A stretch of DNA of 64,000 bases, taken from contig NZ_BCTO01000010.1 of NCBI RefSeq assembly GCF_001571325.1, forward strand, positions 186,001 to 250,000, written 5' to 3'. Below the pieces are notes generated by a model. The model made no database searches. It was not told where the DNA came from and was given only the letters and a program-made list of their open reading frames with translations. Each line of letters begins with the position of its first letter. Positions within the stretch are counted from its first letter, which is position 1. Position numbers and translations under genes: made by a program. The stretch comes from Delftia tsuruhatensis NBRC 16741 (GTDB lineage: Bacteria > Pseudomonadota > Gammaproteobacteria > Burkholderiales > Burkholderiaceae_C). Below are positions 53,696 through 57,710 of the stretch, one piece after another.

Positions 53696-53956
53696 CTAGA
53701 ACGTGCGGCGCGGCAGGAGCAGGGCGCAGCGCAGCAGCATCCACGCCAGCCATTGTTCACGTGCGCCCGGCTTGCGCCGTGCGCGTGCGGCGGCCTCGGC
53801 AATGTGCAGACGCAGGCTGAACAGGGCCTGGCGGTCGCCCCTTTGCACCGCCTGGTGCCAGGCCTGCTCGCAGCGCTGGCGTTCCAGCGCCTGATCGAGC
53901 GGGCTGCGCACGCCGGGCACATCGGCCGTGCCATGGGTGTCGGTGAGGACGTTCAT
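53696..53956 (-). CDS. Hypothetical protein (86 aa) downstream of creD
   Basis: I do not recognise a family. 86 residues, mostly helical and basic (EQAWHQAVQRGDRQALFSLRLHIAEAAARARRK), ending in a hydrophobic LLRCALLLPRRTF tail that could touch the membrane. Its ATG overlaps the creD stop (ATGA), so it is coupled to creD and should be part of the CreBC regulon in this organism. No signal peptide. Confidence 0.65.
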   Translation of the reverse strand: MNVLTDTHGTADVPGVRSPLDQALERQRCEQAWHQAVQRGDRQALFSLRLHIAEAAARARRKPGAREQWLAWMLLRCALLLPRRTF

Positions 53957-55386
53957 GGCTGCAGCGCTCCCACGGTTGGGCGGGTGCCTGCGTCTGCATC
54001 GCCGCGGTCGCCATCCTGCCGGCCAAAGGCATACCAGTCCACATGCCGTGTGCAGACCATGATCAGGGCCAGCACGGCGAACAGCGCGATGGAGCCCACG
54101 ATGAGCGCGCTTTGCTCCAGCTGCAGCAGCACATACAGCAGGCCGTAGAGCGAGGCGATTCCCGCAGCAAACGGCAGGCCGCGCTGCAGGCTGTCCAGGA
54201 TGTGGCTGGCGTAGTAGGCCAGCAGCAGCACGCAGGCCGAGGCAGCAATGCCGTAGGCGCTGGCAAATCCCATGTGCTCCGACAGGCTGATCAGCAGCAG
54301 GAAGAAGCTGCACAGCGCCGATCCCACCAGCAGGTACTGGATGGGGTGCACGCGCAATTGCTTGAGCACCTCGAACAGGCCGACGGCCACAAAGGTCAGC
54401 ACCACGAAGAGCAGGCCGTACTTGGTGGCCCGGTCGCTCAGCGAGTAGGCGTTGATGGGATCCACGAAGTCGGTGTCCAGCGACTCCAGGCAGGGGCCGC
54501 TGCTGGGCGCGTGCGCCGTGGCGGCGTATTCCTCCATGTCGCGGCGGCCTGGCTGGCACAGCGGCTGCTGGTCGGTGAAGGCCTGGCGCGCGGAAGAGGC
54601 CAGTGCCGAGAGATTCCAGCTGGCGTTGAATCCCTTGTCGCTGACTTCACGCCGGTTGGGCAGGAAGCTGCCGCCGAACGAGGGGTGGGGCCAATCGGCC
54701 GACAGCTGGACCTGGCTGTGGCTGCCCAGCGGCACGAAGGCCAGCTTTTCGGTGCCCACCAGTTCCAGGGCAATCTTCAGCTCAAGGGGCTCGTCCTTCT
54801 TGAGCAGGGCAGGCGCCAGCTCCGCCTGCAGGCCTTGCGAGTAGCGTTCCAGCGAGGTACCGGGTCCCACGTCCAGGCTCTTGCCGCCGGCCTCGATGGT
54901 GGCCGAGCGTATACCGCGCGGATCGGTCAGCGACAGCGCCACGCGCAGTGCGCCGCAGCGCACGGCCTGGTTGGCTGTCGCTTCGATGGACGGCTTTTCC
55001 AGGTACTGCGCGGCATGGGTGAAGCTGGCGCTGATGCTGTCCTGCATGGCGTAGGTGCTGACCTGGTGCAGGCCGCGCGAGCGCTCTTCCATGCGTGCCG
55101 TTGCCTCATGGCGCAGTTGGTCGGGCAGCAGCATGCGCTGGAACTGGCGCGTGGTCCATTCCGTCTTGCTGCCCTTTTCTATGCCGGTGGTCTCGGTGCA
55201 GTTTTGCACCAGCACCGGTCCCATCAGCGTCTGGCGTCCGGCCAGGCTGGCGACCACGCCCTGCACGGCGTTGTCGCGGTTGCGTATGCGGTCGCGCACC
55301 ACGTCATGTACCAGGCCCAGGCCCAGCATCAAAAGGCCCAGCATGACCAGCAGGGCCACGCCTTTGGCAAGAAGTCGGTTCTTCAT
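53953..55386 (-). CDS. creD: Inner-membrane protein CreD
   Basis: 477 residues of the CreD family (PF06123): an N-terminal helix (about 8-27), a periplasmic domain to about residue 310, and five or six C-terminal helices. Recognisable stretches are QKAVQGVVASLAGRQTLMGPVL-like sequence near 45, FNASWNLSALASSARQAF and DLPINAYSLSDRATKYGLLFVVLTF-type sequence before the helical part. In enterobacteria and Pseudomonas it is induced by CreBC and affects envelope integrity and beta-lactam response. Its promoter region contains an exact CreB tag (55452-55467). Confidence 0.93.
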   Translation of the reverse strand: MKNRLLAKGVALLVMLGLLMLGLGLVHDVVRDRIRNRDNAVQGVVASLAGRQTLMGPVLVQNCTETTGIEKGSKTEWTTRQFQRMLLPDQLRHEATARMEERSRGLHQVSTYAMQDSISASFTHAAQYLEKPSIEATANQAVRCGALRVALSLTDPRGIRSATIEAGGKSLDVGPGTSLERYSQGLQAELAPALLKKDEPLELKIALELVGTEKLAFVPLGSHSQVQLSADWPHPSFGGSFLPNRREVSDKGFNASWNLSALASSARQAFTDQQPLCQPGRRDMEEYAATAHAPSSGPCLESLDTDFVDPINAYSLSDRATKYGLLFVVLTFVAVGLFEVLKQLRVHPIQYLLVGSALCSFFLLLISLSEHMGFASAYGIAASACVLLLAYYASHILDSLQRGLPFAAGIASLYGLLYVLLQLEQSALIVGSIALFAVLALIMVCTRHVDWYAFGRQDGDRGDADAGTRPTVGALQP

Positions 55387-55451
55387 TCCACATCCCGTTC
55401 GTTGATCGTGGACGCAGTCTGGGCGGGGGCTGTGTGGCCGGAATGAAGTCT

Positions 55452-55467
55452 GTGAAGTGAAGGTGAA
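55452..55467 (-). promoter_or_regulatory. CreB-binding tag (TTCAC-N6-TTCAC) upstream of creD
   Basis: On the minus strand the exact sequence TTCAC, six bases, TTCAC lies 66 bases before the creD start, in the 124-base gap after creC. This equals the cre/blr tag described for CreB in E. coli and its homologues. A third TTCAC overlaps the spacer (55457-55461), making a dense cluster. Confidence 0.8.
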
Positions 55468-56987: not shown

Positions 56988-57710
56988 TCAGCCCGGCAGC
57001 GTCAGGCTGTAGCCCATGCCGCGGTGGGTGGTGATGAAGTCCTGCTGCGGCACCTGGGCACGCAGCTTGGCGCGCAGGGTCTTGACGTGGGTGTCCACGG
57101 TGCGGTCCGTGCTGTCGCTGTCCTGGCCCCAGATGCTGTCGAGCAGGAACTCGCGGCTCAGGATGCGTCCGGGGCGCTCCAGCAGGCAGCGCAGCAGCTG
57201 GTACTCGCGCCGCGTCAGCTCCAGGGGCACGCCCTGCATGCGCACGCGCTGACCTTGCGTATCGATGCTGAACAGGGCATCTGCCGGCGGCGCTGTGCTG
57301 GCTGTGGGCGCGGGCTGCAGGCGCTGCGCACGGCGCAGCAGGGCGCGGGTGCGGGCCACCAGCTCGCGCGGGCTGAAGGGTTTGGTCAGGTAGTCGTCGG
57401 CGCCCAGCTCCAGGCCCAGCACGCGGTCCATTTCCTCGCCGCGTGCGCTGAGCACCAGCAGCGGCACGGCGGCGCCTGCCTGGCGCAGCTCGCGGCACCA
57501 GTCCAGGCCGTTGCCATCGGGCAGGCCCACGTCCAGCAGCAGGGCATCGGGCGGCTGCGCCTGCCATTGCGCGCGTGCATCGGCCAGCTGCAGGCAGTGG
57601 CGCACGGCGATGCCGTCACGCTCCAGCGCATAGCAGACGGTGCGCGCGATGGCGGGGTCGTCCTCCACCAGCAACACGCGCGGGGCGTTCGTCATCGGCA
57701 TGCCTTGCAT
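56988..57710 (-). CDS. creB: Response regulator CreB
   Basis: 240-residue OmpR-type regulator: receiver domain with Asp17-Asp18, phospho-site Asp60 (LLLDVGLPDG), Lys in YLTKPFSPREL, and a C-terminal winged helix (about 145-238; FLLDSIWGQDSDSTDRTVDTHVKTLRAKL in the DNA-binding region). Start at 57710 is chosen because GGAG lies seven bases upstream; internal ATGs at 57701 and 57695 are possible. Activates genes with TTCAC-N6-TTCAC sites. First gene of the creBCD cluster. Confidence 0.93.
   Translation of the reverse strand: MQGMPMTNAPRVLLVEDDPAIARTVCYALERDGIAVRHCLQLADARAQWQAQPPDALLLDVGLPDGNGLDWCRELRQAGAAVPLLVLSARGEEMDRVLGLELGADDYLTKPFSPRELVARTRALLRRAQRLQPAPTASTAPPADALFSIDTQGQRVRMQGVPLELTRREYQLLRCLLERPGRILSREFLLDSIWGQDSDSTDRTVDTHVKTLRAKLRAQVPQQDFITTHRGMGYSLTLPG

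What the first reader, a model, noticed from the sequence alone, without database searches (positions are those of the whole stretch)
55452..55467. Exact CreB tag in front of creD in a betaproteobacterium
TTCAC-N6-TTCAC is present without mismatch on the creD strand, 66 bases before its start, directly behind creC. With creB, creC and creD in order, it makes a self-consistent regulon in the sequence itself. A third overlapping TTCAC may increase affinity. CreBC-CreD is best studied in gammaproteobacteria (envelope stress, beta-lactam response).
Basis: partly seen in the sequence, partly recalled or inferred. Interest (0 to 1): 0.72.

Follow-up and report, generated by a model that had tools for sequence, protein, structure and literature searches.

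The report
Four-repeat CreB switch before creD
The short repeat in front of creD looks like a real, widely conserved docking site for the stress regulator CreB, and it appears to be the upstream half of a larger four-repeat switch whose spacing and repeat letters differ between bacterial groups.

Summary
Observation confirmed: TTCACCTTCACTTCAC lies at 55467-55452 (-), 66 b before the creD ATG, 43 b after the creC stop; creB, creC and creD pass their NCBIfam cut-offs. The exact tag stands at the same place in all 19 nearest named loci (L005-L023) and in 29 of 80. Interpretation partly right: the tag is the upstream box of a four-unit array, TTCAC-N6-TTCAC-N4-TTCAT-N6-CACAC-N10-CAGACT (-10-like), resembling tandem pho boxes without a -35. 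Held-out scoring finds the array above the 99% control level in 54 of 56 dereplicated creBCD loci. Genomes with CreB have it (37 of 41), those without mostly not (5 of 26). The step between boxes is 9 bp in the window's relatives, 10 in E. coli, 11 in Pseudomonas and others; Pseudomonas uses YCCAC units, which hides the tag. No convincing second target was found in this genome. Binding, sign of regulation and any beta-lactam link are untested.

The parts
56988..57710 (-). creB, OmpR/PhoB-type response regulator, 240 aa
   Evidence: NF008296 equivalog 291.4 bits, cut-off 273; PF00072 and PF00486
55511..56971 (-). creC, sensor kinase, 486 aa
   Evidence: NF008312 equivalog 588 bits, cut-off 356
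55463..55467 (-). CreB unit 1, TTCAC (upstream box)
   Evidence: exact; conserved
55452..55456 (-). CreB unit 2, TTCAC (upstream box; units 1+2 are the finding's tag)
   Evidence: exact; 11-bp step
55443..55447 (-). CreB unit 3, TTCAT (promoter-proximal box)
   Evidence: 9 bp after unit 2; present in 24 of 24 near loci examined
55432..55436 (-). CreB unit 4, CACAC (promoter-proximal box)
   Evidence: 11 bp after unit 3; C.CAC in 24 of 24 near loci
55416..55421 (-). -10-like hexamer CAGACT, 10 b after unit 4
   Evidence.A.ACT in 24 of 24 near loci; xAxACT 10 b after unit 4 in 27 of 51 fitted loci, at most 2 at any other gap; consensus scan finds no sigma-70 -35/-10 pair
53953..55386 (-). creD, inner membrane protein, 477 aa
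   Evidence: NF008712 equivalog 489 bits, cut-off 275; PF06123 464.6 bits

Best explanation
This is a CreB-controlled promoter of creD built like tandem pho boxes. Phosphorylated CreB binds as head-to-tail dimers to two boxes of two 5-bp units each (11-bp step inside a box). The upstream box is the exact cre/blr tag; the degenerate box (TTCAT-N6-CACAC) lies 10 b upstream of the -10 hexamer and stands in for the missing -35, so CreB would recruit sigma-70 RNA polymerase there. In the window's relatives the two boxes are 9 bp apart (unit 2 to unit 3). Shown: sequence layout, conservation, co-occurrence with CreB. Inferred: binding, dimer arrangement, activation and its sign.
For: Exact tag about 81-110 b before creD in 29 of 80 named loci, all 19 of L005-L023 included (starts approximate). 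In 56 dereplicated loci with creBC next door, distances between YYCAY units peak at 11 (67), 20 (32), 22 (28), 9 (18), 31 (17), 33 (15), also 35 (12) and 44 (9), against about 1 each in mononucleotide shuffles and 0-1 on the other strand; the exact tag is in 24 of 56, none reversed. Five-fold held-out scoring: 54 of 56 above the 99% level of 2240 real control windows, 51 above their maximum; a model trained on 23 nine-step loci alone recovers 30 of 33 others. On 70 loci not used for training, none with 75% or more creD identity to a training locus: array in 37 of 41 genomes with a CreB over cut-off, 3 of 3 near cut-off, 5 of 26 without (Fisher p 4e-9); above a score of 18 it is 33 of 41 against 0 of 26. 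With units alone fitted and the box step free from 7 to 14, steps 11 (25) and 9 (19) dominate 51 fits, and xAxACT sits 10 b after unit 4 in 27, no other gap exceeding 2. E. coli K-12 creD has the same plan with a 10-bp step; E. coli cbrA and cbrB have a single exact box followed by N10 and TAGTCT or TAAATT.
Against: No binding or expression data. Four of 41 CreB genomes show no array by this model (G241, G067, G640, G245) and two more pass only barely (G352, G078); arrays were called in 5 of 26 genomes without CreB (one of these, G173, has a divergent CreB-like neighbour), and the highest of 2100 random control windows reached 23.8. The unit matrix used came from the joint fit, a mild circularity. 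In S. maltophilia creD is reported as negatively regulated by creBC although the site is alike (passages of PMC5402928 and PMC4689548), so the sign here is open. The -10 is weak.
Confidence: 0.85

Rival explanations
1. Only the exact 16-bp tag is functional; units 3-4 and their spacing are by-products of relatedness and a pyrimidine-rich gap.
For: Units 3-4 are degenerate and vary in sequence, and the published site is the two-unit tag (PMC3660660 passage).
Against: Units 3-4 recur at fixed steps across many beta- and gammaproteobacterial loci and one MAG labelled Myxococcales, on one strand only, with a fixed 10-b gap to a -10; in E. coli cbrA and cbrB the box standing at this gap is the exact tag.
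Confidence: 0.1
2. The array is read mainly by another OmpR/PhoB-type regulator (for example PhoB) and not by CreB.
For: PhoB-type regulators bind similar 11-bp direct repeats; the window's CreB itself scores 203 bits on the PhoB model, below its 296 cut-off.
Against: Array presence follows CreB presence, whereas other regulators of this type match in all 70 genomes searched; TTCAC-N6-TTCAC is the published CreB/BlrA tag.
Confidence: 0.04
3. Chance occurrence of a pattern with 10 specified bases.
For: Four exact copies in 6.6 Mb, three of them without a clear promoter setting.
Against: Position, strand and surrounding units are conserved.
Confidence: 0.01

Closest known systems
cre/blr tag of E. 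coli CreB and Aeromonas BlrA (TTCAC-N6-TTCAC)
   Same: identical pattern, same target gene creD, cognate creBC beside it; tag needed for BlrA action in Aeromonas (review passage PMC3660660)
   Different: here seen as the upstream half of a four-unit array; box step 9 bp instead of 10 as in E. coli creD; no single-box target of the E. coli cbrA/cbrB kind established in this genome
PhoB tandem pho boxes (class II, -35 replaced)
   Same: 11-bp direct repeats in pairs, no -35, box about 10 b above the -10 (pho promoter layout recalled, from no call); PhoB base contacts T194, V197, R201 (passages of PMC3264566 and PMC3973317) align with CreB T204, T207, T211
   Different: other repeat letters; 9-bp step between boxes
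S. maltophilia creD promoter (TTCACACTCGCTTCAA at -80 to -65)
   Same: same distance from creD; unnamed locus L139 carries that very tag and, like L140 and L147, shows units 3-4 with an 11-bp step
   Different: reported to be repressed, not activated, by creBC (passages)

Membership tests
cre/blr-tag promoter (CreB regulon) | TTCAC-N6-TTCAC on the sense strand of the target | tested here: met
   no mismatch
cre/blr-tag promoter (CreB regulon) | cognate CreB and CreC encoded | tested here: met
   NF008296 291.4/273, NF008312 588/356 bits
cre/blr-tag promoter (CreB regulon) | conserved in front of orthologous creD | tested here: met
   29 of 80 named loci exact, all 19 nearest; 54 of 56 by the array model
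cre/blr-tag promoter (CreB regulon) | CreB binds and changes creD transcription | not testable with these tools
   needs footprint and expression
PhoB-like class II tandem-box promoter | pairs of direct repeats at 11-bp step | tested here: met
PhoB-like class II tandem-box promoter | proximal box about 10 b above the -10, no -35 consensus | tested here: met
   E. coli cbrA and cbrB agree
PhoB-like class II tandem-box promoter | continuous 11-bp register across both boxes | tested here: not met
   9-bp step in the window; an 11-bp step is seen in Pseudomonas loci
PhoB-like class II tandem-box promoter | contact of the regulator with sigma region 4 | not testable with these tools
   acidic-patch residues of PhoB E177/E191 align with CreB E187/T201; no test of contact

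The most novel reading that the evidence does not exclude
creD promoters controlled by CreB share one hidden plan, two tandem boxes 10 b above the -10, and lineages have re-phased it (9, 10 or 11 bp between boxes; a 10-bp first step in two betaproteobacterial families) and re-lettered it (TTCAC to YCCAC in the Pseudomonas-type clade, alongside CreB recognition-helix changes at T207 and T211, the positions of PhoB's base-contacting V197 and R201). This would explain why no TTCAC tag is seen in Pseudomonas. The re-lettering rests on essentially one clade, so the protein-DNA link is suggestive only.
Probability: 0.6. Interest if true: 0.55.

Novelty: new variant of a known kind. Interest (0 to 1): 0.45.

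Why it matters
CreBC governs creD and, in some species, the response to wall damage, yet its target rule has rested on one short tag. A two-box rule with a fixed gap to the -10 makes CreB targets searchable in genomes where the tag looks absent (Pseudomonas), and the 9/10/11-bp re-phasing gives a natural series to ask how two response-regulator dimers on one promoter work together.

Tried and rejected
Other exact tags in this genome (L002-L004): none is a convincing target. L002 is in an ABC-transporter frame and its sequence is not among the three exact places of the close relative G036; L004 overlaps a flagellar rod gene start on the other strand; L003's is shared with G036, has a loose CAGGGT at the ten-base gap, but a terminator-like hairpin follows (read by eye) and no long frame does; it stays open. 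A single-box search YTCAY-N6-YTCAC with a loose -10 in five Delftia/Comamonas-type genomes gave one place in each of three, all of different sequence, controls 0. The composite four-unit pattern with up to 3 mismatches finds only this place in the genome.

Tags in other relatives: TTCACGGTAATTTCAC in G006, G017, G019 and G031 lies just before a ribosomal protein S12 gene (Pfam checked on one, L118); the TTCACACC repeats of G028 lie beside a phage-type integrase gene with an arm-DNA-binding domain and may be its arm sites, and G009 and G033 carry a similar repeat; set aside. Four perfect 11-bp TTCAC units: 3 places in 2 of 349 order genomes, one genus; the reversed control also rings in 2 genomes (2 places each); not pursued.

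CreB residue covariation: in a first pass T211 ranked first of all columns, but three loci were mis-registered; after correction W194 ranks first, T207 second, T211 sixth, receiver-domain columns also correlate, and the YCCAC loci fall in essentially one clade.

Rows dropped: one search left out 14 loci that hold no creD upstream DNA of use or repeat the window, and parsed 183; one search kept 91 with creB and creC detected and 125 b upstream, 56 after 75% dereplication; 91 were 'non-adjacent' (29 of them, L086-L114, have flanks too short to hold creB) and L025 was in neither list. In one search, 52 of 56 pass the shuffle level; the misses are L035 and L195 (start codon misplaced; arrays seen further up), L127 and L152. 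The 70 loci leave out creD hits over cut-off that I did not fetch: G205 and G595 (contig ends), G486, and own/same-genus G000, G002. The 24 loci had to match units 1-3, but all 24 considered did, so unit 4 and the -10 are the free evidence.

Literature on this point: searches (listings) and passages of six papers. Nothing I saw there describes a betaproteobacterial creD tag or a two-box creD promoter, but most listed papers were not opened, and the primary tag papers (Avison 2001, 2004; Cariss 2008, the last recalled) were not read (one look-up, not held), so priority cannot be settled.

Full report
What is there. On the - strand the window carries creB (57710-56988), creC (56971-55511), a 124-b gap, and creD (55386-53953); each passes its NCBIfam equivalog cut-off. 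The tag TTCACCTTCACTTCAC is exact at 55467-55452. The closest named creD loci (95%) are labelled Delftia acidovorans, so the betaproteobacterial label is right. A creA gene is elsewhere (contig C8, PF05981 186.9 bits), unlike in E. coli, where it precedes creB.

Chance. One mismatch is enough to drown the pattern (3 places in the window, 1.53 expected), but the exact form is rare (4 places in 6.6 Mb, control 1). Conservation settles the matter: among 80 named creD loci the exact tag lies upstream of creD in 29, namely L005-L024, L027, L028, L030, L033, L034, L047, L050, L052 and L061; it is absent from all 34 loci titled Pseudomonas. L025 begins inside the gene at a contig end and could not be judged.

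The bigger structure. Aligning these regions showed more than the tag. In the window: TTCAC (offset 0), TTCAC (11), TTCAT (20), CACAC (31), ten bases, CAGACT (46). In a MAG labelled Myxococcales (L052) and one labelled Fluviicoccus (L061) units stand at 0, 11, 22, 33 and the hexamer at 48. In Pseudomonas the units are mostly YCCAC or YCCAT at an 11-bp step, again ten bases from CAGACT or the like. In E. coli K-12 creD they stand at 0, 11, 21, 32 with TATCCT at 47.

Tests of that structure. (a) Model-free: in 56 dereplicated creBCD loci, YYCAY-to-YYCAY distances peak at 9, 11, 20, 22, 31 and 33 (smaller rises at 35 and 44), about 1 expected from shuffles, 0-1 on the other strand. (b) Fitted model, held out five-fold, against 2240 real windows from the same loci: 54 of 56 above 99%, 53 above 99.9%, 51 above the maximum; trained on nine-step loci only, 30 of 33 others pass. 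The 56 are still related to one another, up to 75% in creD. (c) With the step free from 7 to 14: 19 at 9, 2 at 10, 25 at 11, 5 at 13 of 51 fits; xAxACT lies ten bases after unit 4 in 27 of 51 (at most 2 at any other gap), the looser xAxxxT in 42 of 51 (next best gap 8). (d) In 24 near loci unit 4 (C.CAC) and the hexamer (.A.ACT) are invariant. (e) In E. coli cbrA and cbrB, which bear one exact tag each, the tag itself stands ten bases from TAGTCT and TAAATT; the four-unit model does not ring there, nor did I see a tag before cbrC. So the box at the ten-base gap is the one shared by these promoters, and at creD that is the degenerate one.

Link to CreB. Over 70 creD loci not used in training and less than 75% alike in creD to any training locus, genomes with a CreB over cut-off have the array in 37 of 41, near-cut-off in 3 of 3, without in 5 of 26; at a score above 18, 33 of 41 against 0 of 26. 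The four misses are G241, G067, G640 and G245. G067 and G640 have creBC and an inverted creD, with TTCAC units pointing towards a divergent VIT/VWA protein gene. Regulators of the same broad type match in all 70 genomes, so the association is with CreB in particular.

Lineage pattern. On a FastTree CreB tree the nine-step loci fall in two neighbouring groups near the root, with L146 apart; the YCCAC loci form essentially one clade. CreB T204, T207 and T211 align with PhoB T194, V197 and R201, described as base-contacting in the PhoB-DNA structure (passages). T211 goes with T at base 2 of unit 2 in 26 of 26; S211 occurs with C (11), T (5) and A (2). This is a lead, not a proof.

Mechanism. The plan is that of PhoB-type class II activation: pairs of head-to-tail monomers on direct repeats, the lower pair taking the place of a -35 (none found). 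I infer that CreB~P fills the strong upstream box and then the weak proximal box, and that creD output follows occupancy of the latter. Activation is inferred from E. coli, Aeromonas and P. aeruginosa (passages); the opposite sign in S. maltophilia is a warning.

The third TTCAC is not shared by the nearest Delftia loci. A wider CreB regulon in this genome found no support at the stringency used, though weaker sites were not searched exhaustively and the L003 site stays open. Whether beta-lactams act through this system here was not tested.

Novelty. The tag, creBCD and CreB control of creD are known (PMC4689548, PMC3660660, passages). The two-box plan, the re-phasing and the YCCAC form were not met in the listings and passages named under Tried and rejected, but the primary papers on the tag were not readable here.

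Noticed in passing
window 53696-53956 (-), overlapping the creD stop by 4 bases: Small ORF (86 aa in the window, 65-99 aa in relatives) with a C-terminal LRC motif near the end, directly behind creD in 48 of 117 loci with at least 330 b after creD; these are the window, named Delftia/Comamonas-type loci and same-genus genomes. Of the set checked only L010, L021 and L104 lacked it, and these are cut off too soon. No Pfam match for the window's copy. A possible translationally coupled partner of CreD.
   Followed up: partly
L194/L197 (G067) and L179/L198 (G640): creD inverted behind creBC and divergent from a VIT/VWA-domain protein gene (TIGR03788-like, 431 and 424 bits, below its 551.65 cut-off); TTCAC units point to that gene, four perfect 11-bp units in L194. 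A candidate second CreB target in relatives.
   Followed up: partly
L158-L160, L162-L165, L173, L196 (order families f22 and f21): First unit step is 10 bp instead of 11 (TTCAC-N5-TTCAC type), a further re-phasing of the array.
   Followed up: partly
L115, L118, L119, L120: Tandem repeats of about 11 bp (TTCACGGTAA type) directly before a ribosomal protein S12 gene in G017, G031, G006 and G019.
   Followed up: no
L201, L202, L203 (G542, G481): Three places with four perfect 11-bp TTCAC units in two genomes of one genus; regulator unknown; the reversed control also rings in two other genomes.
   Followed up: no
L003 1501-1516 (+) and L124 6536-6551 (-): Exact tag in a stretch without long frames, shared by the window's genome and G036, followed by a terminator-like hairpin; possibly a short transcript.
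   Followed up: no
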